Shown in pieces: positions 12,868 to 29,696 of a stretch of DNA of 64,000 nt. Position 1 is the first letter of the stretch, and each line of letters begins with the position of its first letter. Below the pieces are notes generated by a model, which was given only the letters and a program-made list of their open reading frames with translations, was not told the DNA's origin and made no database searches. Made by a program: the position numbers and the translations under genes. Origin of the DNA: Dethiosulfatarculus sandiegensis (lineage in GTDB: Bacteria > Desulfobacterota > Desulfarculia > Desulfarculales > Desulfarculaceae); NCBI RefSeq assembly GCF_000931935.2, contig NZ_AZAC01000029.1, positions 1-64,000 on the forward strand, in the 5' to 3' direction.

Positions 12868-12880
12868 GGCAACTAAAAAA

Positions 12881-12905
12881 GGCCCCGGCTTTTTAAGCCG
12901 GGGCC
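12881..12905. other. Perfect 11-bp hairpin between ppsA and ppsB
   Basis: GGCCCCGGCTT (12881-12891), loop TTT, AAGCCGGGGCC (12895-12905), just after the ppsA stop. There is an A6 run on its left and no T-run on its right. It therefore reads as an intrinsic terminator only for minus-strand transcription. On the sense strand it may protect the 3' end of a processed ppsA message. Confidence 0.6.
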
Positions 12906-12923
12906 GGATAAACGGGGGCGTTC

Positions 12924-14012: not shown

Positions 14013-14181
14013 ATCTGAAATTTTAGCATTATCGGCAAGTTAGTAAAAAAGTCCCCAAGGGGCTCGGGGAGGAGTGCGCTCAAATCAAGACATCTCTCAA
14101 GCATTCAAGGCTTGGCAAAATTTAAAAAAAGCCGGGGCTCCGGTCCCTGAAAGATGTCCATTTTAGAAGAGGGAGAGAAAA

Positions 14182-15654
14182 ATGATTCAAGATCTTAGAG
14201 ATTACATTGCCGCTCTGGAAAAAGAGGGCGAGCTGCACCGGGTCACCACGGAGGTGGACTGGAACCTGGAGCTCTGCCATGTCTCCAAGGTCAATGAGGA
14301 GCAAAAGGGCCCGGCCTTGCTTTATGAAAACGTAAAGGACTATGACATCCCGGTTTTTACCAGCGCCTTTACCACTCCCAAAAGACTGGCCATCTGCCTG
14401 GAACAGGACACCAGCCTTTCCATGAGCAAACTCTCCAAAAAGTGGATGGAGCTGACCACCAAAAAGATGATTCCTCCTGAGATTGTTAGTCATCCCAAGG
14501 TGATGGAAAATGTGATCACCGGCGATGACGTGAATGTGGAAATGTTCCCGGCTCCTTGGTTCTATCCCGAGGATGGCGGCCGTTTTATAGGCACGGCCGT
14601 GTACCTGGTGACCAAGGACCCGGAGACCGGCTGGACCAACCTGGGCACTTACCGCATGCAGATTCTCGGCAAGAACGTGGTCGGCGTGCAGATCATCAAG
14701 GGCAAGCATGCGGATTTCATGCTCAAACAATATGAAGCCATGGGCAAGAAAATGCCCGCCGCCGCGGTGATAGGCTGCGACCCGGTGCTGTTCCTTTGCA
14801 GTTCCACCCTGGTCAGCGCCCAGACAGACGAGTATGACGTAGCCGGTTCTCTGCGCCAGGCCCCGGTGCCGGTCTTTGAAAGCGACCTGACCGGGCTCAA
14901 ACTTCCGGCCACCGCCGAGGTTATTTTAGAAGGGTACATCGATCCCAAGGTATTGATGGATGAAGGCCCCTTTGGCGAGTACACCGGTTATTACTCGGGC
15001 AACAAGGGCAAGGAATGGCCCAAGCCCGCCTTGCAGATCGAGCGCATCCTGCACAGGAACGATCCCATTTTGTGGTCCACCACCGTGGGCAAGCCCATCA
15101 ACGATATCCACATGATCCAGTCCTTAAACCGCACGGCCACCCTTTGGTACGACCTGGAAACCATGCGGGTGCCGGGGATTGAAAGCGTTTACATCCCGCC
15201 CGAGTCCTGTGGCCGTTTCTGGGGCATTGTCTCGGTGCGCCAGAAATACCCAGGCCATTCCAACCAGGTGGGCAACGCGGTTATAGCGAGCACTACCGGC
15301 CACTACGGCATGAAGGGCGTGATAACCGTTGATCACGACATAGACGCCGACGACTGGGACCGCATCATGTGGGCGCTCTCCACCAGGTTTGATCCCAAGC
15401 GTTCGGCCCAGATCATAGACCGGGGCCGTTCCACACCCCTGGACCCGGGTTTGCCCATAGAGGCCAGGGATGTAACCAGCCGCATTATCCTGGATGCCTG
15501 CACCCCCTTTGAATGGCAGAACAAGCCCAATGAAATCTTCATGGACCGGGGAGTCTTGACCAAGGTCAGTGAGCGTTGGGCGGATTACGGTTTGGGTGAG
15601 ACCAGCCCGGTGGCGGATATGATCGACCGCCTCACCAAACCCGAGAGCAAGTAG
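14182..15654 (+). CDS. UbiD-family (prenylated-FMN) decarboxylase/carboxylase
   Basis: 490 residues, the usual UbiD length. The signature DEGPFGEYTGYYSG at 260-273 contains the two active-site glutamates (E261, E266). NLGTYRMQ near 153-160 and the metal/prFMN-binding region are present. UbiD enzymes use prenylated FMN to add or remove CO2 on aromatic rings. Alpha and beta subunits of phenylphosphate carboxylase belong here. By context the enzyme probably carboxylates the aryl phosphate made by PpsABC to a 4-hydroxybenzoate. Only one UbiD is present, unlike Thauera. UbiX (20463) and the LpdD-like gene (19973) in the same cluster would supply and handle the cofactor. A plain hydroxybenzoate decarboxylase cannot be excluded. 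Confidence 0.88.
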   Translation: MIQDLRDYIAALEKEGELHRVTTEVDWNLELCHVSKVNEEQKGPALLYENVKDYDIPVFTSAFTTPKRLAICLEQDTSLSMSKLSKKWMELTTKKMIPPEIVSHPKVMENVITGDDVNVEMFPAPWFYPEDGGRFIGTAVYLVTKDPETGWTNLGTYRMQILGKNVVGVQIIKGKHADFMLKQYEAMGKKMPAAAVIGCDPVLFLCSSTLVSAQTDEYDVAGSLRQAPVPVFESDLTGLKLPATAEVILEGYIDPKVLMDEGPFGEYTGYYSGNKGKEWPKPALQIERILHRNDPILWSTTVGKPINDIHMIQSLNRTATLWYDLETMRVPGIESVYIPPESCGRFWGIVSVRQKYPGHSNQVGNAVIASTTGHYGMKGVITVDHDIDADDWDRIMWALSTRFDPKRSAQIIDRGRSTPLDPGLPIEARDVTSRIILDACTPFEWQNKPNEIFMDRGVLTKVSERWADYGLGETSPVADMIDRLTKPESK

Positions 15655-15747
15655 TCACCGAACCGTTGCCCACGGCCCTTTGCCGGGGCCGGACCTGGAC
15701 TTCGTACACCCTTAAGCCCGGGTCGAGCAGAGTCATACCCCCCAAAA

Positions 15748-15796
15748 CCGGGGCTGGATGGGGAGACAAATGGGTCAATTCCCCATCCGGTCCCGG
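15748..15796 (+). promoter_or_regulatory. Hairpin before the CoA ligase ribosome site
   Basis: GGATGGGGA (15756-15764) pairs with TCCCCATCC (15780-15788), with an outer CCGGG/CCCGG extension. It ends just before CCAAGGAGG. It sits in a 165-bp gap between ubiD and the ligase gene and could be a processing or translation-control structure. There is no T-run, so it is not a terminator. Confidence 0.45.
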
Positions 15797-15819
15797 CAAC
15801 CCAAGGAGGTCGGCCAACC

Positions 15820-17472
15820 ATGAAACCGATCAGGTACACCGAGGCCATGATCCAGGAATTTTTAGGTGACGGCTTTTGGACCAAGGAAACATTCTTTGAT
15901 TTTTACGAGAAAAACGCAGCAGAACTGCCGGACCGGGAGGCCTTGGTTGATTCCAGATACCGGGTCACCTGGGCCGAGGCCAGGGATCTGACCAACGCCA
16001 TAGCCACGGCCTGGGTGGAATCCGGCCTGCCCAAGGACTCCAGGGTGATCATCCAGTCTCCGAACAGTGTTTACGGTTTTTTGGCCAGGATAGCCGCTGA
16101 AAGAGCCGGTCTGGTTTCACTTACGGTTTATCCCTACCTGCGGCAAAGGGAACTTGAATACATGGTGGAGATCACGGAAGCCAAGATGGTGGTGATCCCC
16201 CACATCTACCGCAAGTTCGACTACATAGAGATGTATAAGGAGCTGATGGCCCGTTTCCCGGCCTTGAAGCAGATCTATCTGTTTGACGAGACCGTGCCGG
16301 AAAGCGCGCCTTCAGGCACCAAGTCTCTTATTCAGGAGGCCCAAAAATATCTGGGCAAGGCCGATCCAAAGCTTTTGGATAAAAGGCGGCTGGATGCCAC
16401 GGGCGATGTGGGGCTCCTTACCTCCACCACCGGCACCACCGGCATTCCCAAGCTGGTGGAGTGGCCCATTTCGCCCAGGGTCTGTACGGCCAAGGGCAGG
16501 GTGCAGATCTGGGATCTCACGGAAAAGGATATCACCATGGCCGTGGCCCCCCATGCAGGCGGGGCGGCCGGAACCCTGACCTATTTCGCAGCCCCCATGG
16601 CAGGGGCCAAGACCGTGATGCTGGAGGAGTTTGACCCCAAAACAGCCCTTGAGGTCATGGCCAGGGAAAAGGTAACCGCAATCGGGGTGGTTCCCACCCA
16701 TCTGGTGCGCATGCTGGAGCAGGATATCGAATCCTTTGATCTTGGGGCCTTGCGTTTTATCCGTTCAGCCGGGGGATATCTGCCGCCCAAGGTGGCCAAT
16801 GAGGCGGAAGACCGCTTCAAGGCGGTTATCACCAGCGACCTGGGCACCCAGGACGTGGGTTCGGTTTCCGGCTGCCGGGTCAGTGATTCCGTTCTTTTAA
16901 GACGCTCCACCGTGGGCAGGCCTTTGCCCGGCAATGTGGTGAAGATCTTGGATGACGACGGCAATGAAGTGCCCGGCGGCAAGCCGGGGCAGCTTTGGTT
17001 CAGGGGTCCTCACGCACCTGCGGGCTATTACCGTGACCCCAAGTTGACCTCGGGCGTTTTTGATCAAAACGGCTGGGCCACCACCGGTGACATAGTAAAG
17101 CTGGACCAGGACTGCCTTTGGATCATGGGGCGTAAAAAAGACATGATCATAAGAGGTGGTCAGAATATTTATCCGGCCGAGATTGAAGGGCTTTTGAATA
17201 ACCATCCCGCGGTCTCCAGCGTGGCCGTGGTGGGCATGCCGGATGAGGAGATGGGGGAAAAGGCTTGCGCCTATGTCACGCCCAAGGGAGGCATGGCCTT
17301 TACCTTTGACGACATGAAGACCTTTTTACTGGACAAAAACATTGCCAAGTACAAATTGCCCGAACGCTTGGAATTGACTTTGGAAATGCCCACAGTCGGT
17401 GATTCGGGCAAGATCAACAAGGAAGTGCTTAAAGAGGATATTGCCCGAAAACTGGGGCAGGGGATGCATTGA
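15820..17472 (+). CDS. AMP-forming acyl/aryl-CoA ligase, probably for a hydroxybenzoate
   Basis: 550 residues of the acyl-adenylate-forming superfamily. The P-loop STTGTTGIPK is near 199-208. ATTGD near 422 and GRKKDMIIRGGQNIYPAEIE near 440-460 are the nucleotide and hinge motifs. Lys531 in GDSGKINK is the conserved catalytic lysine. The overall pattern is closest, by eye, to dihydroxybenzoate-AMP ligase and cyclohexanecarboxylate-CoA ligase types. In context it should activate the 4-hydroxybenzoate produced by the UbiD enzyme to its CoA thioester. The aryl substrate is inferred. It is followed 3 bp later by the UPF0261 gene. Confidence 0.85.
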   Translation: MKPIRYTEAMIQEFLGDGFWTKETFFDFYEKNAAELPDREALVDSRYRVTWAEARDLTNAIATAWVESGLPKDSRVIIQSPNSVYGFLARIAAERAGLVSLTVYPYLRQRELEYMVEITEAKMVVIPHIYRKFDYIEMYKELMARFPALKQIYLFDETVPESAPSGTKSLIQEAQKYLGKADPKLLDKRRLDATGDVGLLTSTTGTTGIPKLVEWPISPRVCTAKGRVQIWDLTEKDITMAVAPHAGGAAGTLTYFAAPMAGAKTVMLEEFDPKTALEVMAREKVTAIGVVPTHLVRMLEQDIESFDLGALRFIRSAGGYLPPKVANEAEDRFKAVITSDLGTQDVGSVSGCRVSDSVLLRRSTVGRPLPGNVVKILDDDGNEVPGGKPGQLWFRGPHAPAGYYRDPKLTSGVFDQNGWATTGDIVKLDQDCLWIMGRKKDMIIRGGQNIYPAEIEGLLNNHPAVSSVAVVGMPDEEMGEKACAYVTPKGGMAFTFDDMKTFLLDKNIAKYKLPERLELTLEMPTVGDSGKINKEVLKEDIARKLGQGMH

Positions 17473-17475
17473 GCC

Positions 17476-18723
17476 ATGGAAAGCCAAGTGCTTTTAATCT
17501 CCACCCTGGACACCAAGGCCTCCGAGACCTTTTATCTCAAGGAGCAGATGGAAAAGGGCGGCCTCGAAGTCTGGGTGATGGATCTTTCAATGGGAGCGGC
17601 CTCGACTCACACCTGCCGGGTTCCGGCCCGGCAGGTGGCCCTGGCCGGTGGTTGGGATATTGACAGCATCAGAGAATCCAGGGAAAGGGCGAAGATTACC
17701 GCCGTTATGACCAAAGGGGCCGTCAAGATCGCCCGGGATATGTTTTTTCAAGGCAGATTGAGGGCTGTGGTGGGTTTGGGAGGCTCCACCGGCTCCCTTA
17801 TGGCCGGGGAGGTGATGCACGGGCTGCCCTTTGGCCTGGGCAAACTTTTGGTCTCAAGCACCGCCGCCCTGCCGGGCATGGCAACCCGTTACATAGGCAC
17901 CGCAGATCTTATGCTCTTGCACACCGTGGTGGAGATTGCCGGTCTTTCTCCGCTTCTGCGCTCGGTCCTGGACCGGGCTGCCCAAACCGCCGTGGGCCTG
18001 GCCAGGGCTCCGCTTTTGGATCCCGGCAAGACCATGCAAAACGGTGAGCGCCTTTTGGCCATGAGCATGTTCGGGCCTTGCGAAAAATGCGCCCAAAGGG
18101 CCAGGCTGGGGTTGGAAAAGGCGGGCTGGCAGGTGATCGGCTATTCCGCAGCCGGGGTCTGTGACCGGGCCATGGAAAAGATGATAGGCCAGGGTTATTT
18201 CAAGGGGGTCTTGGATATCGCCTCCGGCGGGGTGGGAGAGGAGATCATGGGCGGCATGAGGGCGGCCGGGCCGGAGCGCCTGGAAACAGCCGGCCGCATG
18301 GGCCTGCCCCAGGTCATAGCCCCCAGCGGGGTCAACCTGATGAGCCCCCGCAAGTCCCGTTATAAACCGGATTATTATAAAAGGCGTAAATATGATTTGG
18401 ACAAACACCGCACCTTCTTACGCTTGACGCCGGCTGAACTGGTCAAGGTGGCGGGCGAGTTTGCCAGAAAACTCAACCAGGCCAAGGGACCGGTGACCTT
18501 TCTGATCCCCACCAGGGGCTGGGCGTCTTTTGACTGCCAGGGGCAAAGTGTGCATGCGCCTTTGGAAGACAGTCTTTTTACAAAGGAACTAAAAAAAAAG
18601 ACCAAGGATCATGTAGAGGTGCGCGAGGTGGATGCCAACCTGGAAGATCCGCTTTTCTCAGATGAGCTGGTTAAGGCGATGCTGTTTTTATTGCCAGATG
18701 CACAGGGAGAAGCCCATGGTTAA
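17476..18723 (+). CDS. UPF0261 / Tm-1-like ATP-binding domain protein
   Basis: 415 residues. The opening (LLISTLDTKASETFYLKEQM), GLGGSTGS near 98 and the late segment PTRGWASFDCQGQ are typical of the UPF0261 family, related to the plant Tm-1 resistance protein ATP-binding domain. No enzymatic function is established for bacterial members. The gene sits 3 bp after the ligase and overlaps the Nudix gene by 8 bp, so it is firmly inside the aromatic operon. A helper role in aryl-phosphate or CoA-ester metabolism is conceivable, but nothing in the sequence specifies it. Confidence 0.82.
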   Translation: MESQVLLISTLDTKASETFYLKEQMEKGGLEVWVMDLSMGAASTHTCRVPARQVALAGGWDIDSIRESRERAKITAVMTKGAVKIARDMFFQGRLRAVVGLGGSTGSLMAGEVMHGLPFGLGKLLVSSTAALPGMATRYIGTADLMLLHTVVEIAGLSPLLRSVLDRAAQTAVGLARAPLLDPGKTMQNGERLLAMSMFGPCEKCAQRARLGLEKAGWQVIGYSAAGVCDRAMEKMIGQGYFKGVLDIASGGVGEEIMGGMRAAGPERLETAGRMGLPQVIAPSGVNLMSPRKSRYKPDYYKRRKYDLDKHRTFLRLTPAELVKVAGEFARKLNQAKGPVTFLIPTRGWASFDCQGQSVHAPLEDSLFTKELKKKTKDHVEVREVDANLEDPLFSDELVKAMLFLLPDAQGEAHG

Positions 18724-19261
18724 ACCCTGGAAATTGGTTTCGGAAAAAGACAAGGCCGACCTGGGGCTCTTCAGGGTCAAGGGACGCAAGGCCGTTTCTC
18801 CCTTAAACGGCCTGGTGCACGAGTTCATGGTGGTTAACATGCCGGATTGGTTGCAGCTATTACCCATCACTCAAGAGGGCCGGGTGGTTTTGGTGAAACA
18901 ATACCGGCATGCCAACCAAATGATAGGACTGGAAGCGCCGGGAGGCCTGGTGGAGCCGGATGACCCTGATCCCGGACTGGCCGCCTTAAGGGAGTTAAGA
19001 GAGGAAACCGGCTATGGCGGGGGAGAGGTGTTCCATTTGGGGACCTTTTGGCCCCAACCGGCCATGCTGGCCAATCAGGCCCATTTTTATCTGGCCAAGG
19101 GAGTGAGCTTGCAGGGCCCCCAGGAACAGGATCCCGGCGAGGACATAGAGGTGGTTCTGGCCTGGCCCGAGGAGATGGAAGAAATGATCGCTAAAGGCAG
19201 GGTGCATAACGCCATGACGGTTCTGGCCTGGACCCTGGCCCAAAAAGCCCGGCTGGTGTGA
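18716..19261 (+). CDS. Nudix hydrolase
   Basis: 181 residues from ATG 18716, which overlaps the UPF0261 stop by 8 bp; a longer frame upstream would lie inside that gene. The Nudix helix ALRELREETGYGG carries the metal-binding REL-x-EE-x-G core. The preceding loop is one residue longer than consensus and the first glutamate is not conserved. The LVKQYRHA and EAPGGLVEP motifs resemble ADP-ribose pyrophosphatase-type enzymes. From memory, a MutT/Nudix-like ORF is also part of the Thauera phenol gene cluster, which supports a conserved but unknown role. Its stop codon is 24 bp before the CBS gene. Confidence 0.87.
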   Translation: MVKPWKLVSEKDKADLGLFRVKGRKAVSPLNGLVHEFMVVNMPDWLQLLPITQEGRVVLVKQYRHANQMIGLEAPGGLVEPDDPDPGLAALRELREETGYGGGEVFHLGTFWPQPAMLANQAHFYLAKGVSLQGPQEQDPGEDIEVVLAWPEEMEEMIAKGRVHNAMTVLAWTLAQKARLV

Positions 19262-19284
19262 GCGAAAATAAAGGAGGGGTGGAG

Positions 19285-19995
19285 ATGATCCTGAAAAACT
19301 GGATGAAAAAAGACCCGGTCACAGTAGACAGCGACACCTTGGTTGAAGAGGCTGAGCGCATCATCAATAAGCACAGCCTGAGAGCTTTGCCTGTGGTGGA
19401 TCAGGGCCGCTTAAGGGGGCTTGTGACCAGGCGTAATCTCTATCGCTCCAACGTTTTTGTGGCCCGCACTCAAGACCCCAATGAAATGAATTACTTCCTT
19501 ACCCAGTTAAAGGTCAAGGACATCATGATCCGCATGCCCAGAACCGTTCAGGTAACTGATTCGGTGGAGGCTGTGTTGCGTAAAGGCGCGGTGGATCAGG
19601 TGAGCCTTTATCCGGTTCTGGATGGTGAAACCCTGGTGGGCATCTGTTCTTCTGTAGAGATATTCCGCACCTTTAGTCAGATTCTGGGGGTGAGCCAGGT
19701 CTGGAAAGGCATAACCCTAAGGCCGGTTGTGATTGAAAACGACACCTTGAGCAATGTTGCCCAGGTGGCATCCCGCGCCGGGGCAAGGCTGCACGCCCTG
19801 TTTACTTTGCCGGACAATGGCGAGGAAGAGAAAAAGGTGGTCTTGCGCTTTGAGGCCGATGATCTGTCCGCCGTGGTGGAGGCCTTGGACGAGGCGGGTT
19901 ACGGGGTTTTGGAACAAAGGGACATGGTCCAGCTCTGCGAGGCCCCCTTGAGTCACAAAGAGGTGTTGAAAAATGGGGCGAGTGCTCAGGTTTGA
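19285..19995 (+). CDS. ppsC: Two-CBS-domain protein, probable regulatory subunit of phenylphosphate synthase
   Basis: 236 residues from ATG 19285, chosen because AAGGAGGGG lies just upstream; a GTG at 19258 is less likely. Two CBS domains (about 1-65: MKKDPVTVDSDTLVEEAERI; about 75-135: IMIRMPRTVQVTDSVEAVL) are followed by an ACT-like region (about 150-215). In Thauera, protein 3 of phenylphosphate synthase (24 kDa) has two CBS domains and stimulates the other two subunits several-fold. The same role is inferred here, probably by sensing nucleotides. Unlike Thauera, the gene is separated from ppsAB by four genes. Confidence 0.75.
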   Translation: MILKNWMKKDPVTVDSDTLVEEAERIINKHSLRALPVVDQGRLRGLVTRRNLYRSNVFVARTQDPNEMNYFLTQLKVKDIMIRMPRTVQVTDSVEAVLRKGAVDQVSLYPVLDGETLVGICSSVEIFRTFSQILGVSQVWKGITLRPVVIENDTLSNVAQVASRAGARLHALFTLPDNGEEEKKVVLRFEADDLSAVVEALDEAGYGVLEQRDMVQLCEAPLSHKEVLKNGASAQV

Positions 19996-20356
19996 GACCA
20001 AAACCGGGGTTTGTGATCTCGAGGCCGCCGCGGTTTGGGTGGGCTCGGACTTGCTTGTCTGGATTCAAGGAGGAGAGGCTCCCCATATCGGAGCCGTGGC
20101 CATGGCCCAGCCCAGACCTTCTTTGGCTGATCCAAATAAGGTGAGCGCCACCACCAGTGTATTCGCCTATGTGGGGCACAAGGAAGACATGTTGGCCCAA
20201 AAGGCGGCCCAGACCCTGGCCTCGGCCCTTAATACCAGGGTGGTGGTCACAGCCGGGGCCCATTGGGACAACCTGGACAGCGCGGGCATTAAAAAGGTCA
20301 TGGCCAATTTCAATGACCTTTTGGGGGTTGTTTTGCAGGGACTTTTAAGGGAATAA
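19973..20356 (+). CDS. LpdD-like small protein associated with UbiD/UbiX enzymes
   Basis: 127 residues, overlapping the CBS gene by 23 bp. The segments GEAPHIGAVAMAQPRP and VVTAGAHWDNLD resemble LpdD, the small third protein of lactobacillus gallate decarboxylase (with LpdB = UbiX and LpdC = UbiD). LpdD-like proteins are thought to help handle prenylated FMN. The gene lies 106 bp before ubiX and in the same cluster as a ubiD homologue, which fits. Recognition is by motif and context only. Confidence 0.65.
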   Translation: MGRVLRFETKTGVCDLEAAAVWVGSDLLVWIQGGEAPHIGAVAMAQPRPSLADPNKVSATTSVFAYVGHKEDMLAQKAAQTLASALNTRVVVTAGAHWDNLDSAGIKKVMANFNDLLGVVLQGLLRE

Positions 20357-20462
20357 CGGGTTTCATACTCGGTAAACCCTATGGGTGATATTGACAATGT
20401 GGATGGATTGGCCCATTATCAGGGCCTGGTTCTCCGCAAAGCCATGGTTTTAAGGAGTGATC

Positions 20463-21077
20463 ATGACACTTCCTTTGGTGATCGGCATATCAGGCGCCAG
20501 CGGAGTTATCTACGGGGTGGAGATGTTGAAGGCCCTGAAAGAGCTTCGGCATCCCAGCCATCTGATCGTCAGCCAGGCCGGAGCGCGCAACCTGGCTATT
20601 GAAACCAACTACAGTCTGGATGAGGTCAAATCCCTGGCCACTCGTGTTTACGATGTAAAGGATGTGGGGGCGGCGGTGGCCAGCGGCTCCTTTAGAACCA
20701 AGGGCATGGTCATAGCCCCTTGCACCATCAAGACCCTTTCGGCTGTGGCCAATTCCTTTAACTACAATCTTTTGATCCGGGCGGCGGACGTGACCTTAAA
20801 GGAAAAGCGTCCCCTGGTTTTGATGGTGCGGGAGACGCCTTTGCACAAAGGCCACCTTGAGCTTATGGCCAGGGCGGCTGACCTGGGGGCTTTGATACTG
20901 CCGCCGGTCCCGGCATTTTATCATGACCCCAAGGGGATAGAAGACATCATAAGACAAAGCGTGGGTAAGGCTTTGGACCATTTTCATATTGAACACAACC
21001 TTTTCAGGCGCTGGCAAGGCGAGGAAGCCCAAATAGAAACAAAGCCGGAACAGCGGCTCAAGCCTGTCCCGGCCTGA
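20463..21077 (+). CDS. ubiX: Flavin prenyltransferase UbiX
   Basis: 204 residues from ATG 20463; AAGGAG ends 5 bp upstream, so this start is preferred over GTG 20457. The FMN-binding GISGASG at residues 8-14 and the later VIAPCTIKTLSAVANSF and PLVLMVRETPLHKGHLELM segments are diagnostic. UbiX joins dimethylallyl phosphate to FMN to make prenylated FMN, the cofactor required by UbiD enzymes such as the one at 14182. Confidence 0.93.
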   Translation: MTLPLVIGISGASGVIYGVEMLKALKELRHPSHLIVSQAGARNLAIETNYSLDEVKSLATRVYDVKDVGAAVASGSFRTKGMVIAPCTIKTLSAVANSFNYNLLIRAADVTLKEKRPLVLMVRETPLHKGHLELMARAADLGALILPPVPAFYHDPKGIEDIIRQSVGKALDHFHIEHNLFRRWQGEEAQIETKPEQRLKPVPA

Positions 21078-21118
21078 AAGGCGGAGAATGGAAAACCTAA
21101 AACACCTGGAGGCTCGCG

Positions 21119-21997
21119 ATGTTATTGCCCGGGTTTGACTATCACCGGCCCAGGGAGATCAAAGAGGCCCTGGCGGTTTTGGCTGATTACCAGGATCAGG
21201 CCGCACTTCTGGCCGGAGGCACGGATCTGTTGGTGAATATGAAAAGAAAACTGGCCCGACCCAGCCAGGTGGTGGGACTGGAGGCTCTTGCGGGGTTAAA
21301 GGAAATTCAGGTGGGAGAGAATGAAATAAGGCTTGGCCCCATGCTCACGGCCACTGAGTTGGCTGAAAATCCCGAGGTCCAGTCCCTGGCCGGGGTGCTC
21401 GCCCTGGGTGCCTCCCGTTTGGGAGGCGAGCAGGTGCGCAATCGGGCCACCTTGGGCGGTAATGTAGTCAACGCCCGCCCGGCCGCTGATTTGTGCCTGC
21501 CCCTTTTGGCCCTGGAGGCCAAGGCACTGCTGAAAAGCGTCTCTGATGAGCGGATTTTGGATCTGGACGAGTTTTTCCTGGGGCCGGGAGAGACGGCCCG
21601 CAGGCCATCAGAGATGGTCACTGCCCTGATCGTGCAACGGGAGTCTTTGCCCGTGGGCTATGGCTATGAAAAATTGGGCCTGCGCCAGGCCATGGAGATA
21701 GCCCTGGTCAACGTGGCTGTGAAGCTCGTTTTGGAAAAAGATAAAAAGACCGTAAACAAGGTTTTTATTTCCCTGGGCGCGGTGGCTCCCAGGCCGATTC
21801 TGGCCCGTGAGGCGGCTGGGACCCTGGCAGGGGCGGAGGCCGGGGAAGATGCTCTTAAAAACGCCGCCCGCAAGGCGGTTTCAGAGGCCAGTCCCATTGA
21901 CGATCATAGAGGGGCTGCCTGGTACAGGAAACGGATGATTGAGGTGCTCACCTTCCGCGCTTTGAAACAGGCCTGGGAACAGGCCAAAGGCGCCTAG
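21119..21997 (+). CDS. FAD-binding subunit of a molybdenum hydroxylase (xanthine dehydrogenase/HcrB family)
   Basis: 292 residues. FAD motifs ALLAGGTDLLVNMKRK (about 29-44) and LGGNVVNARPAADLCLPLLA (about 112-131) are present, followed by the CO dehydrogenase flavoprotein C-terminal domain. CTGGAGG precedes the ATG. In the 4-hydroxybenzoyl-CoA reductase of Thauera the equivalent subunit (HcrB) has a roughly 40-residue insertion with four cysteines holding an extra 4Fe-4S cluster. Here the whole subunit has one cysteine (in ADLC), so that cluster is absent. With the next two genes it forms the three-subunit enzyme. Confidence 0.88.
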   Translation: MLLPGFDYHRPREIKEALAVLADYQDQAALLAGGTDLLVNMKRKLARPSQVVGLEALAGLKEIQVGENEIRLGPMLTATELAENPEVQSLAGVLALGASRLGGEQVRNRATLGGNVVNARPAADLCLPLLALEAKALLKSVSDERILDLDEFFLGPGETARRPSEMVTALIVQRESLPVGYGYEKLGLRQAMEIALVNVAVKLVLEKDKKTVNKVFISLGAVAPRPILAREAAGTLAGAEAGEDALKNAARKAVSEASPIDDHRGAAWYRKRMIEVLTFRALKQAWEQAKGA

Positions 21998-22063
21998 AAA
22001 TCGCCTCGTGGAAAACAGATTTCAAGGGGCATTTTGAGTAACACCCGGCAAGGGAATTTAGAT

Positions 22064-22540
22064 ATGAAAAAGCACCACATAAATCTGACGGTAAACGGCA
22101 AGGAGCTGGAACTTTTAGTTTCTTCCAATCACACCCTGGCCCAGGTTCTGCGCAAGGATCTCAAGCTGACCGGTCTTAAACAGGGGTGCGAAGTGGGAGA
22201 CTGTGGATCCTGTACAGTGCTTCTGGATGGATCGCCGGTGAACTCCTGTCTGGTTTTGGCGGTTCAGGCCCAGGGCAGGGAGGTTACCACTATCGAGGGG
22301 CTTGCCCAGGGCAATGAGATGCACCCGGTGCAAGAGGCAATGGTCGAGCACGGGGGCATACAGTGTGGGTTTTGTTCTCCGGGAATGATTCTTTCCGCCA
22401 AGGCGCTTTTGGATAAAAAGCCCGATGCCGGGCGTGAAGAGATAAAAAGGGCCCTTTCCGGCAACCTGTGCCGCTGCACCGGATACCAGAAGATTCTGGA
22501 GGCTGTGGAAGACGCGGGACGCAGAATGGGGAGGTCGTGA
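22064..22540 (+). CDS. 2Fe-2S subunit of a molybdenum hydroxylase (HcrC/CoxS family)
   Basis: 158 residues from ATG 22064, preceded by AAGGGA; an upstream TTG (22034) is less likely. The plant-type 2Fe-2S site is C42, C47, C50 and C62 (GCEVGDCGSC). The second, all-alpha 2Fe-2S domain has C101, C104, C136 and C138 (CGFCSPGM, CRCTGYQ). Both clusters are intact. It relays electrons between the molybdenum subunit and FAD. It ends 2 bp before the molybdenum subunit gene. Confidence 0.92.
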   Translation: MKKHHINLTVNGKELELLVSSNHTLAQVLRKDLKLTGLKQGCEVGDCGSCTVLLDGSPVNSCLVLAVQAQGREVTTIEGLAQGNEMHPVQEAMVEHGGIQCGFCSPGMILSAKALLDKKPDAGREEIKRALSGNLCRCTGYQKILEAVEDAGRRMGRS

Positions 22541-22542
22541 TC

Positions 22543-24897
22543 ATGGGACAGAAGTTTAAGGTTATAGGTTCCAGGGCCCCTCGGGTGGATGCGCCGGACA
22601 AGGCCACCGGCAGGGCTGTTTTCATGGATGACCTTGAGTTCAAAGACGAGTTGGTGGGGGTGATCCTGCAAAGCCCTTATGCCCACGCCAGGATACTGGA
22701 TATAGACGCCAGTGCGGCCAAGGCATTGCCCGGAGTCAAGGCGGTGCTCACCGGCCGAGACCTGCCGGAGATTAAATACGGCGTATCTCCGGCCCGTTAC
22801 GATGAGGAACTCCTGGCCAGGGACAAGGTGCGTTATGTGGGCGACGAGGTGGCCTGTCTGGCTGCGGTGGATTTGGAAACCGCTTTAGAGGCCTTGGAGC
22901 TGATCAAGGTTGAATATGAACCCCTGCCCTATGTGCTCACCGTGGAAGATGCCCTGGCCGAAGATGCGCCGGTGATTCACGATGCCTTTCCGGGCAATAT
23001 CTGCGCGGAGGTGCACCAGGAGTTCGGGGACGTGGCTCAGGGCTTTGCTCAAAGCGATTTCATCCGCACGGACAACATGTTGAACAAGCGACAGGACGGA
23101 GCCTTTATCGAGCCCCACCGGGCGGTTGCGGTATATGACTTAAGCGGTGGCCTCACCCTGTACAGCTCCACCCAGGTGCCCCATTACGTGCAGCGCACCG
23201 TCTCCATGGTCACCGGCCTTGATGTGGGCAAGGTGCGGGTGATCAAGCCCTATGTGGGGGGTGGATTCGGGCCCAAGGCAGAGGCCACGCCCCTGGATAT
23301 GTGCGCCGCTTTTTTGAGCATCAAGACCGGGTTGCCGGTGCGCATGTCCTACACCAGGGAGCAGGTGTTTCTGCATTGCCGGGCCAGGCACCAGTTCAAC
23401 CACACCATGAAGGTGGGGTTCAAAAAAGACGGAGCCATAATGGCGCTGGATCACCAATGCACCCTGGAGGGGGGGGCATATTCCTCCTTTGGCATTGCCA
23501 CGGTCTATTATGCGGGTTCACTTTTGGGTGCGCCTTATCTCCTGCCCAATATGAAATACGACGGCCTGAGAATCTATACCAACAAACCCGCCTGCGGGGC
23601 CCAAAGGGGGCACGGCGGGGTGATCGCCAGGGCGCTTTTCGAACAACAGCTGGATCTGGTGGCCGAGGAGCTCGGCATGGACCCGGTTGAGCTGAGGCTT
23701 AAGAACATCATGGAAGCGGGAGATGTTTCCTGTAATGATCTGGCCATGAGCTCCCTGGGGATGAAGGAATGCATCGAGGCAGTGGCAAACGGCTCGGACT
23801 GGCAGGAGAAAAGGGGCAAGCTGCCGCCCGGCCAGGGGATCGGCATGGCGTCCGGGTTTTTTGTTTCTGGCGCGGGCTATCCCATCTACCGTTCAGAGAC
23901 CTACCACTGCACAGTGACGATCAAGGTTCAGGAGGACGGAGGCACGGTCAAGGTCATGACCGGCGCGGCCGAGATCGGCCAGGGTTCGGACACCGCCATG
24001 GCCATGATCGCGGCCGAGGCCATCGGCATACCCCTTGAGTCGGTGCGCATAGTCTCGGGCGATACGGACCATGGGGTTGACCTGGGGGCCTATTCCTCCC
24101 GCACCACCCTGATGACCGGTCACGCCACCAAACAGGCCGGGGAAAATGTCAAGGATAAGGTGCTGACCGCCCTGGCCGAGGAACTTAATGTGGAAAAAGA
24201 CCGCCTGGATATAGTTGAAGGCAAGGTCCGGATCCAGGGTGACGGGGTCGATATCAAGGCGGTTCGCCAGAAATACCTGAAAGAACACAGGGGTTGGGAA
24301 GGGATGCCCCGGGGAGAGGAGCTCACCTTCAGCGAGGCCGCGCGGGTGGCTTATCTTAAATTCGGCACCATAGTGGGGACGGGCAAGTACAAGCCCCCTG
24401 TTTTAGGCGGCAAGTTCAAGGGGGCCGCGGTGGGCACTTCCCCTGCCTATGGCTGCTCGGCCCAGGTGGCCCAGGTCGAGGTGGATCTGGAGACCGGCCA
24501 GGTCCGGGTGCTTAACATCACAGACGCCCATGACTGCGGCAAGGCCATAAACCTGACCAGTGTGGAAGGCCAGATGGAGGGCTCGGTCTCCATGGGGCTC
24601 GGCGAATGCATGTTCGAGGAGGTTAAGTTTGATGATAAAGGCAGGGTGCTGAACCCTTCTTTGGGCGAATACCACATACCCACTGTGATGGATATGCCCC
24701 GGATGAATTGTATTGTGGTGGAGAGCAACGAGCCCAACGGCCCCTTTGGGGCCAAGGAAGTGGGTGAAGGAGCTATCATGCCCACCATCCCGGCCATATT
24801 GAACGCTGTGCGCGATGCCACCGGAGCGGCTGTAGATGAGCTTCCCCTGACTCCGGAAAGAGTGCTCAAGGCGATTATGGATAAGGATAAAGAATAA
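22543..24897 (+). CDS. Molybdopterin-binding catalytic subunit of a molybdenum hydroxylase (xanthine dehydrogenase/HcrA family)
   Basis: 784 residues from ATG 22543, 2 bp after the previous stop. The cofactor-binding motifs are present: YVGGGFGPKAE near 240, TGAAEIGQGSDTAMAMIA, YSSRTTLMTGHA, and PFGAKEVGEGA near 735. Glu742 there corresponds to the catalytic glutamate of xanthine dehydrogenases. In context the enzyme is expected to remove the 4-hydroxyl group from 4-hydroxybenzoyl-CoA to give benzoyl-CoA. The family also contains hydroxylases and dehydrogenases of N-heterocycles, and the missing cluster in the FAD subunit leaves the reaction open. It is the last gene before the terminator. 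Confidence 0.9.
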   Translation: MGQKFKVIGSRAPRVDAPDKATGRAVFMDDLEFKDELVGVILQSPYAHARILDIDASAAKALPGVKAVLTGRDLPEIKYGVSPARYDEELLARDKVRYVGDEVACLAAVDLETALEALELIKVEYEPLPYVLTVEDALAEDAPVIHDAFPGNICAEVHQEFGDVAQGFAQSDFIRTDNMLNKRQDGAFIEPHRAVAVYDLSGGLTLYSSTQVPHYVQRTVSMVTGLDVGKVRVIKPYVGGGFGPKAEATPLDMCAAFLSIKTGLPVRMSYTREQVFLHCRARHQFNHTMKVGFKKDGAIMALDHQCTLEGGAYSSFGIATVYYAGSLLGAPYLLPNMKYDGLRIYTNKPACGAQRGHGGVIARALFEQQLDLVAEELGMDPVELRLKNIMEAGDVSCNDLAMSSLGMKECIEAVANGSDWQEKRGKLPPGQGIGMASGFFVSGAGYPIYRSETYHCTVTIKVQEDGGTVKVMTGAAEIGQGSDTAMAMIAAEAIGIPLESVRIVSGDTDHGVDLGAYSSRTTLMTGHATKQAGENVKDKVLTALAEELNVEKDRLDIVEGKVRIQGDGVDIKAVRQKYLKEHRGWEGMPRGEELTFSEAARVAYLKFGTIVGTGKYKPPVLGGKFKGAAVGTSPAYGCSAQVAQVEVDLETGQVRVLNITDAHDCGKAINLTSVEGQMEGSVSMGLGECMFEEVKFDDKGRVLNPSLGEYHIPTVMDMPRMNCIVVESNEPNGPFGAKEVGEGAIMPTIPAILNAVRDATGAAVDELPLTPERVLKAIMDKDKE

Positions 24898-24957: not shown

Positions 24958-25110
24958 GTTCTGTAGACAGAATTTGAAATTATGGCCACATGCCTACCTG
25001 GTTCCTGGTATTTTTTCGCTCCCTTGCTAAAATTAATCTATCTGCAAAAAAACTGCCCCGCGGGGGACGCCTGCCCTTCTTGCCCCCCGGCGATCCGAAC
25101 GGAGTCAGTC

Positions 25111-26307
25111 ATGTTCACCAATTGGTTGACCAGGCTGGAGAAGGTGTCCCTGGCCCATAGCAGATGGGAGCAAGAAGCCATATACGGCTTGCGCTACAAG
25201 GTCTATGTGGAGGAGCTTGCCAAGAAAAACCCCAGCAATGTGGACCACGAACGGCAGTGGATAAAAGATCCGGGAGACAGTGAACCGGGCACGGTTTTGC
25301 TTTATTCCGGCTCCATGCCCAACCTTTCCGGCACCTTGCGGCTCACCACCTGGCAACCCGGCCAAATCCCGGAAGAGGTGGTGGAGCGTTATTCCCTGGA
25401 ACTTTTCCCTGATTATGAGAACTTGACTATCTGTGAGGCCGCCCGGCTGGTGGTGCGGTCAAACTTCAGGGGAAAGCTTATTCTGCCGTCTCTGGCCAGG
25501 GCCTGTTACGAAACAGTGTGCCGCAAGCAGAATGTGCACCTGGCTTTTCTTTACTGCGCTCCCGGCCTGGTGCGGGTTTACCGCCGCCTGGGGTTCAGGC
25601 CCTATTCCGGCAGGCTGGTCTCAACCAAAGACGGCATCAGGGTGCCCCTTTTGATGATACCCTCTGATCTGCGCTATTTTCGGGAAGTCAATTCCCCGCT
25701 CAGCTGCCTGGCCAAAGAGATATTCGGCCAGGGAGGCAGGGGACACCTCAATATAAAACCCTATCTGCATCTTTTGCAGGCAGATGCCGCTCAGTACCAG
25801 CTCGACGCTGAATATGTGTGGACCCGCCTGGAGACTGATTTTCTGCAAAGGAAACATACAGGTTCCACCTTTTTACAGGACCTGGCCCCGGCCGACCTTA
25901 AGCTTCTTTCCAGCAAAGGCTTTATTCTGGAGGTGACCGCGGGGGAGACTGTGACCAGGGAGGAGCTGGTGGAAAAGGAAGTTTTTTTGATTCTGGAGGG
26001 ATCTTTCGAGGCCATGGTGGGGCATAGAAGGCTGGCTATTTTGAACAAGGGAGATGTCTTTGGTGAAGAGGCTTTTTTTCTGGAGTCGGGCCGCAGGACC
26101 TCCACCATACGCTCCCTTACGCCGGGTAGGGTTATTGTGCTGCGCCGCAGATTTATCCAGGAAATAGGAAAAACCAATCCCGCTCTGGAGGCCTGCATCC
26201 TCTTTAACCTGGGGAGGGTCATGGCCATGCGCCTGTCCGAGATGATTTCGAGTATTGATCCCCAGACCGACACCTGCGGGGCCTCAAGCCTGATGAAGAC
26301 GGGTTGA
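25111..26307 (+). CDS. GNAT/FeeM-like acyltransferase fused to a cyclic-nucleotide-binding domain
   Basis: 398 residues from ATG 25111, with GGAG 6 bp upstream; an open frame to 24982 is non-coding in character. The N-terminal half (about 20-210: YGLRYKVYVEEL, EAARLVVRSNFRG, VYRRLGFRPYSG) resembles the N-acyl amino acid synthase/PEP-CTERM-associated acyltransferase branch of GNAT. The C-terminal part (about 265-380: LEVTAGETV, FLILEGSFEAMV, GDVFGEEAFFLESG) is a cNMP-binding beta-barrel with no DNA-binding domain. Mycobacterial Pat couples the same two domain types in the opposite order and is cAMP-controlled. Allosteric control of acylation is inferred; the substrate is unknown. Confidence 0.75.
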   Translation: MFTNWLTRLEKVSLAHSRWEQEAIYGLRYKVYVEELAKKNPSNVDHERQWIKDPGDSEPGTVLLYSGSMPNLSGTLRLTTWQPGQIPEEVVERYSLELFPDYENLTICEAARLVVRSNFRGKLILPSLARACYETVCRKQNVHLAFLYCAPGLVRVYRRLGFRPYSGRLVSTKDGIRVPLLMIPSDLRYFREVNSPLSCLAKEIFGQGGRGHLNIKPYLHLLQADAAQYQLDAEYVWTRLETDFLQRKHTGSTFLQDLAPADLKLLSSKGFILEVTAGETVTREELVEKEVFLILEGSFEAMVGHRRLAILNKGDVFGEEAFFLESGRRTSTIRSLTPGRVIVLRRRFIQEIGKTNPALEACILFNLGRVMAMRLSEMISSIDPQTDTCGASSLMKTG

Positions 26308-26401
26308 AAAAACGCTTGAGTCTTTGAACAGGAGGATCTTTCCTTAAATTTTGTCCTGCCCCGCATTACAGATGGTCTCTTATTGATTAAGGGGTTTTGA
26401 C

Positions 26402-27210
26402 ATGTCCACGCCAAGGGGCTCCTTGAGTTTGAGGAATTCAATAACCGTACAGATGAGCTTAAGCGCCTGGAGTCCCAGGCCAGGGCCGGGCTTGAGATTG
26501 AACGCGCCTATTGGCGCAGGTTGGGCCTCAAACCGGGGCTGGATGTATTGGATTTGGCCTGCGGAACCGGGATTATAAGCTGTGAGCTGGCGAGGTTTGT
26601 GGCCCCTGGCCGGGTGGTGGGCTTGGATGGCTGCCAGGCCTTTATCCAAAGGGCTGGAGACCGGGAAGAGGCTTTGAACCTTGCTAATCTTTCTTTCAGG
26701 TGCGGTGATATCTATGAGCCGGATTTGCCGGCTGATTCCTTTGATTTTGTCTATGCCCGTTTTGTTTTCCAGCATCTCGAAAAATCGGTCAGGGCCTTGA
26801 GGAGCATAAAGCGTTTACTAAAGCCCGGAGGCCTGGTCTGCGTGGTGGATGTGGATGATGACTGGCTGGGGCTTTATCCGCCTTTGTCTGAATTTTTATC
26901 CTTTACCAGCGCGGCTCGAAAAGGGCAGAAAGAAAACGGCGGCGACCGTAATGTGGGCCAGAAGCTGGTGGGCTATATGCATGAGGCCGGATTACGGGAG
27001 GTTCGGGCGGATATTCAGGTGATCACCAGTTTTGATCTGGGTTTGAAAAAATTTTTGCAGTTAACCACGCTGTTTAAACGCGAGCAGATTTCCAGGCAAC
27101 GAAAAGAGCGCACAAAAGAGGAGTTGGCCCGTTTGAGGGTCTGCGCTGAAGATGGATCTGCCTGGGGAGCGGCAGGGATTTTTGTGGTTACAGGCCGCAA
27201 AGATGATTGA
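26402..27210 (+). CDS. Class I SAM-dependent methyltransferase, probable 1-nt frameshift near its start
   Basis: The glycine-rich SAM motif VLDLACGTGIISCELA, the acidic residue in VVGLDGC, and FDFVYARFVFQHLE plus LLKPGGL mark a class I methyltransferase. The frame carrying these motifs is open from 26401 but has no ATG, GTG or TTG before TTG 26521. Its translation up to there (HAKGLLEFEEFNNR ... EIERAYWRRL) looks like real protein. ATG 26402, preceded by AAGGGG, is in another frame. One extra G in the GGGG run at 26415-26418 would join them into a normal start MSTPRGLLEFEEF. Either a sequencing error or a true frameshift is likely. The methyl acceptor is unknown. It lies just upstream of hgcA. 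Confidence 0.7.
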
Positions 27211-27442
27211 CTATGGAATAAATGCAAGTAAAATAGTAGGTTATATATTCCGATTATGAAGCATAAAACAGCTCTGGAAAAGGGGATTATTTTTGAAAAG
27301 CGATCTTAGCTGTACAGAGATGAGCCCTGATCCGGGGCGCAACAATGAGGTGTGTTGAGGACCCCGCGCCACAGCCTGGACGGCTGTCCCCATAGACAAA
27401 CAATCCTTTGTCACCCACACAATCATAACTCCTGTTGGGCAA

Positions 27443-28435
27443 GTGCCGCTGGTGGCGACAGACTTAAGCCTCAAGGACCGGCTTTACGGATGCCTGGTCC
27501 GTTGGGGGATAAACCGCATGAACTACCCGGTGCGTCCGGGGTTGTATGGGGTTAATCAACCCGGCCAGGACTCACCTGTCCTGGTCACCTGTAATTACAA
27601 ACTCACCTTTGACTGTCTTCGCCGTTGTTTGGGCAAGGTCAACGCCTGGATTCTGGCCCTGGACACCAAGGGAATCAATGTCTGGTGCGCGGCAGGCAAA
27701 AAGACCATGTCCACGGACAACCTGGTCAAGAGCCTGGCAAAGGAAAAAATTTTAAACCTGGTGAATCACAGGCAACTGATCCTGCCCCAGTTGGCAGGGC
27801 CAGGGGTGGCCGCCCACCTGGTGAAAAAGGCCGCCGGTTTCAGGGTCATCTACGGGCCGGTCGCGGCCCGTCATATCCCGGAATTTTTGGCCAACGGTTT
27901 CTCGGCTGATCAGAAGATGCGGGAAAAAGGGTTCGGGCTTTATGAAAGGGCGGTGCTCACCCCCATGGAGTTGCTGCCCGGCCTGCGCCTGGGCCTTCCC
28001 CTGGCCGCTGTGGTCGGGATTTTGACCGCCTTGCTCTGGCCCGGAGCTTTTTTAAAAAATTTGGAGTCGGTCGGCGCACTGACCGGTCTTTACATCTTGT
28101 GGAGTTTGTTTCAGGGGACTGTGTTGGGCCCCTTGCTCCTGCCCTGGTTGCCCGGCCGGGCCTTTGCCGCCAAGGGCTGGTTTTTGGGCTTGCCCGGATG
28201 GTGGGCCTATTGCCTGGCTTTTATGCGGCCGCAAGGGTTTGACTGGCTGTTGTTATGGCCTTTTTTGCCTTTGGGAGCTTCTTTGGTCTCCTTTAGCTTG
28301 ATGAATTTCACCGGCGCTTCCACTTTTACCTCCATGACCGGTGTGGAAAAAGAGATCAAGGCCCATGTTCCCCGGCAGGCACTGGCCCTTGGCCTGGGAC
28401 TGGCCGCCTGGCTCTTAATGCCTTATTTGGGTTGA
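27443..28435 (+). CDS. hgcA: HgcA, corrinoid protein for mercury methylation
   Basis: 330 residues from GTG 27443. The cap-helix motif NVWCAAGK (79-86, Cys82) is the diagnostic HgcA signature in which the cysteine ligates cobalt. The corrinoid domain (about 20-180) is followed by about five membrane helices (about 185-330) containing the conserved NFTGASTFTSMTGVEKEIK. HgcA transfers a methyl group from its corrinoid to Hg(II). The reading frame continues upstream without a start to 27359, and its translation (DKQSFVTHTIITPVGQVP) matches the usual HgcA N-terminus. The true start therefore lies upstream; see findings. hgcB follows by 10 bp. Confidence 0.95.
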   Translation: MPLVATDLSLKDRLYGCLVRWGINRMNYPVRPGLYGVNQPGQDSPVLVTCNYKLTFDCLRRCLGKVNAWILALDTKGINVWCAAGKKTMSTDNLVKSLAKEKILNLVNHRQLILPQLAGPGVAAHLVKKAAGFRVIYGPVAARHIPEFLANGFSADQKMREKGFGLYERAVLTPMELLPGLRLGLPLAAVVGILTALLWPGAFLKNLESVGALTGLYILWSLFQGTVLGPLLLPWLPGRAFAAKGWFLGLPGWWAYCLAFMRPQGFDWLLLWPFLPLGASLVSFSLMNFTGASTFTSMTGVEKEIKAHVPRQALALGLGLAAWLLMPYLG

Positions 28436-28445
28436 GGTTAGAAAA

Positions 28446-28724
28446 GTGTCCCGATCACCGCTTTATATTAAAAATGTAAGCACTCTTCTGCTTTTTTCCG
28501 ACCTTTGCATTGGTTGCGGAACCTGTCTCAGCGTCTGCCCGCATCAGGTTTTGAAACTGGTCAAGGGCAAGGTGGCGCTCAAATGCCTGGATGCTTGCAT
28601 GGAATGCGGGGCCTGCGCCTTGAATTGTCCGGCAAAAGCCATTACAGTGAACTCCGGGGTGGGGTGCGCAAGCTCCATTATCCTGACCGCCCTGGGGCTT
28701 GGCTCCCAAAAGGTTTGCTGCTGA
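28446..28724 (+). CDS. hgcB: HgcB, ferredoxin partner of HgcA
   Basis: 92 residues from GTG 28446. Two 4Fe-4S sites are seen: C21, C24, C27, C31 (CIGCGTCLSVCP) and C51, C54, C57, C61 (CMECGACALNCP). An extra Cys47, a conserved Cys74 (GVGCA) and a C-terminal CysCys pair (91-92) are all features of HgcB. HgcB reduces the HgcA corrinoid and its terminal thiols are thought to bind mercury. It is 10 bp from hgcA and presumably co-transcribed. Confidence 0.95.
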   Translation: MSRSPLYIKNVSTLLLFSDLCIGCGTCLSVCPHQVLKLVKGKVALKCLDACMECGACALNCPAKAITVNSGVGCASSIILTALGLGSQKVCC

Positions 28725-28874
28725 AAGCAACGCCTGTCTTCTTTTACCTCCAGTACATGGCTGTTTCCAATCGTGACAAGAATATGTTAAAAATAACATA
28801 TCAAGTTCATGAACGACTTCCTCTGCCTTAATGTTTCGTATAATCAGACTGTTGTGACCTGAAACGGAGTGAAG

Positions 28875-29696
28875 ATGAAACGCCTTGCCCTGGCTTTGTT
28901 TTTGACGACGACCTTTACCTGCATGCTGTCTTTCTCTGCCTTTGCCGCTGGCAGCTTCTATGTCATAGGTCTGGGCCCGGCCGGGCCGGAATTCCTTTCC
29001 AGACAGGCGGCCGGTTTAATCCAAAAAGTGGACGCCGTTATTGTGGGAGAGAATCTGGGACCCAGGTTCAGGAACTTTTTGGCCGGGAAAAAGGTTTTGT
29101 TTAATCCTTATGATTATCATCGCCGCAACTTCGCCGCCCTGCATCCGGAATGGCCGGATGCCAAAATAAAAAAAGAGCTCGAATCTGCCCGGGCCCAAAA
29201 GGCCGGGCTTGTGCTTAACATGCTGAAACAAGGCCATGATGTGGCCTATCTTGCCGCCGGAGACCCGAACATCTTCGGCAGCTGGCGGCACTGGATAAAA
29301 GGATTCATACCCGAGGACAGGGTAAAGGTGATCCCGGGTATCAGCTCTTTTAACTCTGCCGCGGCAGCCCTGAAAAGAAACCTGATCTGCAACAGCTCCG
29401 TGGTCCTGGCCACACCTGATATGGTAAATGAAAATGAACCCCTGGTCGCGGCTCTGGCCAGGGGCGGCGACACCATGGCCCTTTTCATGGCCTTAAAAAA
29501 ACCTTCCGCATACATTTCCAAACTGGCCAGGCATTACGGCCCTTCCACCCCGCTTACTGTGGTTTACTACGCCGGGTATCCCCACAAGGAAAAAGTCATA
29601 AAGACCACCTTGGCAAAGGCGGTTTCCGTTATCACAGCCGAGCCTGAAAAATATATGGGAATCGTCTTTGTCGGCCCCTGCCTGGCGGCTTATTGA
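28875..29696 (+). CDS. Exported tetrapyrrole (corrin/porphyrin) methylase-fold protein
   Basis: 273 residues from ATG 28875 (GGAG 5 bp upstream). Residues 1-23 are a clear signal peptide (ALALFLTTTFTCMLSFSAFA). The mature part begins FYVIGLGPAGPEFLSRQA, the first motif of tetrapyrrole methylases. It continues with AYLAAGDPNIFGSW, the GDP motif, VIPGISSFNSAAAAL, and a late ATPDMV/VVYYAGYPHKE region as in CbiF/CobM. Such enzymes methylate corrin or porphyrin rings with SAM in the cytoplasm, so a signal peptide is odd. It is 150 bp downstream of hgcB and convergent with the VWA gene. A corrinoid-related role is possible but unproven. Confidence 0.82.
   Translation: MKRLALALFLTTTFTCMLSFSAFAAGSFYVIGLGPAGPEFLSRQAAGLIQKVDAVIVGENLGPRFRNFLAGKKVLFNPYDYHRRNFAALHPEWPDAKIKKELESARAQKAGLVLNMLKQGHDVAYLAAGDPNIFGSWRHWIKGFIPEDRVKVIPGISSFNSAAAALKRNLICNSSVVLATPDMVNENEPLVAALARGGDTMALFMALKKPSAYISKLARHYGPSTPLTVVYYAGYPHKEKVIKTTLAKAVSVITAEPEKYMGIVFVGPCLAAY

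What the first reader, a model, noticed from the sequence alone, without database searches (positions are those of the whole stretch)
27443..28724. hgcAB: genetic potential to methylate mercury
The HgcA cap-helix motif NVWCAAGK and the conserved membrane-loop motif, plus HgcB with two 4Fe-4S sites and a terminal CysCys, are diagnostic. The organism is therefore a predicted methylmercury producer. Co-occurrence with a phenol-type pathway is ecologically notable for polluted sediments.
Basis: partly seen in the sequence, partly recalled or inferred. Interest (0 to 1): 0.75.

Follow-up and report, generated by a model that had tools for sequence, protein, structure and literature searches.

The report
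Mercury-methylation genes, HgcA with selenocysteine
This bacterial genome carries the gene pair hgcA and hgcB that lets microbes turn mercury into toxic methylmercury, and its hgcA gene is longer than it first looked because it reads an internal "stop" signal as the rare amino acid selenocysteine.

Summary
HgcA scores 368.5 bits against NF040863 (cut-off 275) and HgcB 106.3 against NF040864 (cut-off 99). HgcA keeps NVWCAAGK. HgcB keeps both 4Fe-4S motifs, the GVGC cysteine and the terminal Cys-Cys.

The gene boundary is wrong. GTG 27443 is not the natural start. The frame runs on upstream through an in-frame TGA (27356-27358), read as Cys-Sec, to TTG 27293 or ATG 27320. A profile of this N-terminal stretch from 19 relatives, window left out, finds only this stretch in the six-frame window (E = 2e-8). 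Twelve bases after the TGA stands a GG-loop hairpin, placed as in Sec-type relatives and mostly weak or absent in Cys-Cys forms. The genome has SelA, SelB, SelD and tRNA-Sec, and its SelD itself carries a UGA at the usual Sec site.

HgcA falls with its own taxonomic family, on a long branch, but keeps the conserved positions. Sec-containing HgcA ("CU") is already listed in the literature: a new member of a known kind. Methylation is predicted, not shown; the role of the Cys-Sec end (probably Hg(II) capture) is inference. The neighbouring phenol-type genes are real.

The parts
27293..28435 (+). hgcA, full-length reading with TGA 27356 as selenocysteine, from candidate start TTG 27293 (380 residues). 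ATG 27320 is the other candidate start. Last in-frame TAA upstream is at 27263.
   Evidence: The stretch from the Cys-Sec to the start of the old ORF matches an N-terminal profile of 19 relatives at E=2.1e-8, the only significant hit in the six-frame window. Choice of start is inference.
27280..27285 (+). Shine-Dalgarno-like AAGGGG, 7 nt before TTG 27293
   Evidence: Sequence; inference.
27353..27358 (+). TGT-TGA: N-terminal Cys-Sec pair (C21-U22 of the TTG-start protein)
   Evidence: in-frame TGA after Cys in about 20 related hgcA genes at nearly the same distance from the conserved VPxV; Cys-Cys stands in this region in others.
27371..27387 (+). bSECIS-like hairpin: ACAGCC (27371-27376), loop TGGAC, GGCTGT (27382-27387), beginning 12 nt after the TGA
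   Evidence: 6-bp stem with GG in the loop, reached in 0.5% of shuffles; same place as the stem of most Sec-type relatives, generally weak or absent in Cys-Cys homologues. Single-sequence folding energy is not unusual.
27443..28435 (+). hgcA as first reported (330 aa): corrinoid-binding domain plus transmembrane domain
   Evidence: NF040863 368.5 bits vs cut-off 275, profile positions 1-322 of 325.
27677..27700 (+). Cap helix NVWCAAGK with the corrinoid-coordinating Cys (C82 of the short ORF; Cys93 in ND132)
   Evidence: Invariant in 17 aligned HgcA; role of Cys93 from PMC7305189.
28446..28724 (+). hgcB: dicluster ferredoxin with C21/C24/C27/C31, C51/C54/C57/C61, GVGC74 and terminal C91-C92
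   Evidence: NF040864 106.3 bits vs cut-off 99; sequence.

Best explanation
The locus is a functional-looking hgcAB operon whose HgcA is a selenoprotein. HgcA carries an N-terminal Cys-Sec pair encoded by TGT-TGA and a SECIS-like hairpin, followed by the corrinoid-binding domain with the Cys-on cap helix and a membrane domain. HgcB is an ordinary Cys-type dicluster ferredoxin. From published work on HgcAB, HgcB is presumed to reduce the corrinoid, SAM methylates the cobalt centre, and the methyl group passes to Hg(II). The step I add by inference is that the N-terminal Cys-Sec pair is a soft, high-affinity ligand that captures Hg(II), or takes over CH3Hg+, near the active site, as the Cys-Cys tail of HgcB is proposed to do. 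Shown here: gene identity, intact residues, coding continuity through the UGA, the hairpin, and the Sec machinery. Inferred: Sec insertion in vivo, Hg methylation, and the role of the pair. The confidence given is for hgcAB with a Sec-containing HgcA, not for the role of the pair.
For: Curated equivalog hits above cut-off. The cap helix and other invariant columns are kept, and only 2 of the columns conserved at 95% or more deviate, against a median of 1 in 94 HgcA. Own-family placement, 96% SH-aLRT. N-terminal profile built without the window, E=2.1e-8. In-frame TGA after Cys at nearly the same distance in about 20 homologues, with Cys-Cys in others. SECIS-like hairpin placed as in Sec-type relatives (mean stem score 14.1 over Sec-type rows against 7.6 over Cys-Cys rows). 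SelB, SelA, tRNA-Sec and SelD above cut-offs, and SelD with a UGA at its usual Sec position. All 12 tested named genomes with clear Sec-type HgcA have selA; 5 of 14 others lack it. Mechanism of HgcAB: PMC7305189 and PMC11588087.
Against: No experiment. The hairpin is not unusual by single-sequence folding energy (z about -0.2 to -0.8), and the lowest-energy fold of the shortest stretch pairs differently. The HgcA branch is very long (1.59 against a median of 0.3), and HgcA (49-53% identity to family members) is more diverged than AcsC (75-78%), so relaxed or altered function is possible. The Sec pair is not universal: some members of the same family have Cys-Cys, GGG-Sec, Thr-Sec or nothing there, so it is unlikely to be essential in general. 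The selA association is weak (one-sided exact p about 0.03, worked out by hand) and uncorrected for relatedness.
Confidence: 0.87

Rival explanations
1. Ordinary hgcAB with HgcA starting at GTG 27443; the upstream TGA is simply a stop in non-coding DNA.
For: GTG 27443 opens a clean ORF and NF040863 aligns from residue 1.
Against: The 28 codons before GTG match the conserved N-terminal stretch of relatives (E=2.1e-8). In many relatives the same stretch follows a TGA or Cys-Cys. No clear Shine-Dalgarno before 27443. The SECIS-like hairpin is positionally conserved.
Confidence: 0.06
2. hgcA is a decaying or recently inactivated gene: the TGA is a nonsense mutation and the fast divergence reflects lost constraint.
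For: Long branch.
Against: The TGA is shared at the same place across several families. Conserved columns are kept. The downstream 330 codons and hgcB are intact.
Confidence: 0.03
3. HgcAB here does another methyl-transfer job, such as methylation of a metalloid or an unknown substrate, with mercury methylation as a side reaction. (This can be true together with the best explanation.)
For: The natural role of HgcAB is, to my knowledge, unsettled, and this protein is fast-evolving with a soft-metal Cys-Sec pair.
Against: The residues tied to mercury methylation in the literature are kept; no alternative substrate gene is conserved beside it.
Confidence: 0.2

Closest known systems
HgcA/HgcB of Pseudodesulfovibrio mercurii (formerly Desulfovibrio desulfuricans) ND132
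   Same: Cap helix with Cys-on ligand, membrane domain, dicluster ferredoxin with the extra conserved Cys and terminal Cys-Cys.
   Different: This HgcA has an N-terminal Cys-Sec pair encoded by TGT-UGA; it is also strongly diverged (about 41-53% identical to the other HgcA examined).
Selenocysteine-containing HgcA with 'CU' motif (NF040863, WP_250697417.1 in the review PMC13188914, which cites Haft and Gwadz 2023)
   Same: HgcA with a Cys-Sec motif.
   Different: No difference in kind seen; I could not read the original paper, so the motif position was not compared residue by residue.
Selenocysteine-containing HgcB ('GVGU', NF040864)
   Same: Same gene pair, Sec used in mercury methylation.
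   Different: Here HgcB has Cys (GVGC) and the Sec is in HgcA. GVGU forms were seen in five other loci.
Corrinoid iron-sulfur protein large subunit (CFeSP gamma, PDB 2h9a, 4djd)
   Same: Homologous corrinoid-binding domain (E=4.6e-12).
   Different: CFeSP lacks the cap-helix Cys and the membrane domain; this genome has a separate copy of it.

Membership tests
HgcA (NF040863) | Score above curated equivalog cut-off | tested here: met
   368.5 bits vs 275
HgcA (NF040863) | Cap helix N-V/I-W-C-A-A-G-K with strictly conserved Cys | tested here: met
   N79-K86, invariant in 17 aligned
HgcA (NF040863) | C-terminal transmembrane domain of five helices | tested here: inconclusive
   Model aligned to position 322 of 325, so the domain is there by homology; a simple hydropathy scan found only three strong windows, two of them overlapping, so the number of helices was not established
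HgcB (NF040864) | Score above curated cut-off, two CxxCxxCxxxCP motifs, GVGC, C-terminal Cys pair, adjacent to hgcA | tested here: met
   106.3 vs 99; residues; 10-nt gap after hgcA
Mercury methylator | Forms methylmercury | not testable with these tools
   Needs culture or purified protein
Selenoprotein | In-frame UGA with coding conservation on both sides and Cys homologues | tested here: met
Selenoprotein | bSECIS hairpin shortly after the UGA with G in the apical loop | tested here: met
   Stem 27371-27387, loop TGGAC, placed as in relatives; folding energy alone inconclusive
Selenoprotein | Sec machinery in the genome (SelA, SelB, SelD, tRNA-Sec) | tested here: met
   610.9/267.9, 422.2/242.25, 383.1/125 and 73.2/47 bits against cut-offs
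Selenoprotein | Sec present in the protein | not testable with these tools
   Needs mass spectrometry or 75Se

The most novel reading that the evidence does not exclude
In this lineage, full mercury-methylation activity depends on selenium. The N-terminal Cys-Sec pair of HgcA is the Hg(II)-capture (or product-release) site of the complex, so selenium supply controls methylmercury output by the many sulfate-reducer-like bacteria with this form.
Probability: 0.25. Interest if true: 0.7.

Novelty: new member of a known kind. Interest (0 to 1): 0.42.

Why it matters
hgcAB marks organisms able to make methylmercury. Gene callers that stop at UGA cut off the N-terminus of Sec-type HgcA, so the conserved Cys-Sec/Cys-Cys end drops out of the annotation, as it did here. 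The Sec form is common in the relatives sampled and offers a direct, testable link between selenium and methylmercury formation.

Tried and rejected
Neighbouring genes as functional partners: the methyltransferase (26521), FeeM/cNMP protein (24982) and tetrapyrrole methylase (28869) are not found beside hgcA in relatives (the same-family loci searched there had only 1.5 kb flanks). Sec in HgcB here: GVGC is Cys; nothing recognisable follows the TGA after the terminal Cys-Cys. Organism name: own records not shown and no 16S found in the assembly. One same-family genome (G001) is a single contig of 3,655,731 bases, which from memory is the size of Desulfarculus baarsii, so Desulfarculaceae is my guess; the paper library did not confirm it. 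MerB: no match in the genome, but nothing rang in the controls either, so uninformative. Haft and Gwadz 2023 and Smith 2015 are not held. Rows L096, L036, L057, L074, L108 and L021 have TGAs that look like real upstream stops or unrelated frames and were not counted as clear Sec forms. No structure prediction was run: curated profiles already settled the families.

Full report
Identity. The ORF 27443-28435 scores 368.5 bits against NF040863 (HgcA; cut-off 275) and 28446-28724 scores 106.3 against NF040864 (HgcB; cut-off 99). HgcA keeps NVWCAAGK, with the Cys that ligates cobalt (Cys93 in ND132; PMC7305189). HgcB keeps both CxxCxxCxxxCP motifs, the cysteine of GVGC (matching Cys73 of ND132, needed for activity) and the terminal Cys-Cys. 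Of the columns conserved at 95% or more in 94 HgcA, the window deviates at two.

The gene is longer than reported. Upstream of GTG 27443 the frame has no start codon for 28 codons and then meets TGA at 27356, directly after TGT. Reading TGA as Sec, the frame continues to ATG 27320 and TTG 27293, the latter with AAGGGG seven bases ahead; the last in-frame TAA is at 27263. The stretch C-U-GPRATAWTAVPIDKQSFVTHTIITPVGQ is the N-terminal stretch of other HgcA: Cys-Sec, a short linker, then DQPFVtGsveTpvG and VPxV. A profile of 19 Sec-type relatives, window excluded, finds it over all 30 positions at E=2.1e-8, with no other significant hit among 1632 six-frame segments of the window.

Selenocysteine. 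Three lines agree. (a) Homologues have Sec or Cys-Cys in this region, and the TGA is shared across families, so it is no sequencing error. (b) A hairpin ACAGCC-UGGAC-GGCUGU begins 12 nt after the UGA. Sec-type relatives have a stem in the same place, typically GGCUC-AGGU-GAGCC or similar with GG or G in the loop; Cys-Cys homologues mostly do not (mean stem score 14.1 vs 7.6; the window's score is reached by 0.5% of shuffles). The Sec mean includes a few rows whose TGA is probably a true stop, which lowers it. Folding energy alone is not unusual. (c) The genome has SelB, SelA, tRNA-Sec and SelD above their cut-offs, and its SelD reads MGQDVNLAEKARAAG-UGA-AAKVGPGDL, a UGA at the usual active-site position, so UGA is very probably recoded in this organism. 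In named genomes, 12 of 12 with clear Sec-type HgcA have selA and 9 of 14 others do (one-sided exact p about 0.03 worked out by hand, uncorrected for kinship).

Evolution. In a 94-row tree made without the Sec stretch, the window groups with three same-family HgcA, all Sec-type (96% SH-aLRT), on a long branch of 1.59 against a median of 0.3. Its HgcA is 49-53% identical to family members, which are about 55-61% identical to each other between most genera, while AcsC is about 75-78% in both cases. The Sec label needs 9 changes on the tree against 25 when shuffled: it is inherited but gained or lost repeatedly. Within the one family there are Cys-Sec, GGG-Sec, Thr-Sec, Cys-Cys and none.

Mechanism. 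Published: HgcB is presumed to reduce the corrinoid, SAM methylates it, and the methyl goes to Hg(II) with Co-thiolate ligation from the conserved Cys (PMC11588087; PMC7305189). Proposed here: the Cys-Sec pair is a soft-metal site for Hg(II) capture or CH3Hg+ release, parallel to the Cys pair of HgcB. This is inference.

Known status. Sec-type HgcA ('CU') and HgcB ('GVGU') are listed in the review PMC13188914, and PMC11588087 notes that some HgcA/HgcB may be selenoproteins. This is a new member of a known kind, not a new system.

Context. The phenol-type cluster upstream is supported: phenylphosphate carboxylase beta (595.3 bits vs 469), UbiX, phenylphosphate-synthase-like proteins, a CoA ligase and a 4-hydroxybenzoyl-CoA-reductase-like enzyme below its cut-off (879 vs 994.6). 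Co-occurrence is a fact; 'polluted sediment' is not shown.

Noticed in passing
L075, L094, L099, L105, L111: HgcB with GVGU (in-frame TGA in place of the GVGC cysteine), in loci whose HgcA was not scored as Sec-type (L111 does have a Cys-TGA further upstream in hgcA, outside the range counted).
   Followed up: partly
26400-27210 (+): SAM methyltransferase beside hgcA: coding-like sequence appears to begin about 120 nt before the first start codon (TTG 26521), after a TGA, with no ATG/GTG/TTG between; an alternative start or a frameshift is likely.
   Followed up: partly
28869-29696 (+): Tetrapyrrole (precorrin) methylase-like protein with an apparent signal peptide, directly after hgcB; not found beside hgcA in relatives.
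   Followed up: partly
11023-24897 (+): Phenol-type (phenylphosphate carboxylase) gene cluster.
   Followed up: partly
24982-26307 (+): FeeM-type N-acyl amino acid synthase domain fused to a cyclic-nucleotide-binding domain.
   Followed up: no
L134 (G000:C47:2815-3738): SelD of this genome is itself read through a UGA at its active-site position.
   Followed up: yes
L006, L010, L014, L015, L016, L017: Same-family HgcA with the Sec codon after Thr or Gly-Gly-Gly instead of Cys, so the partner residue of Sec is not fixed.
   Followed up: no
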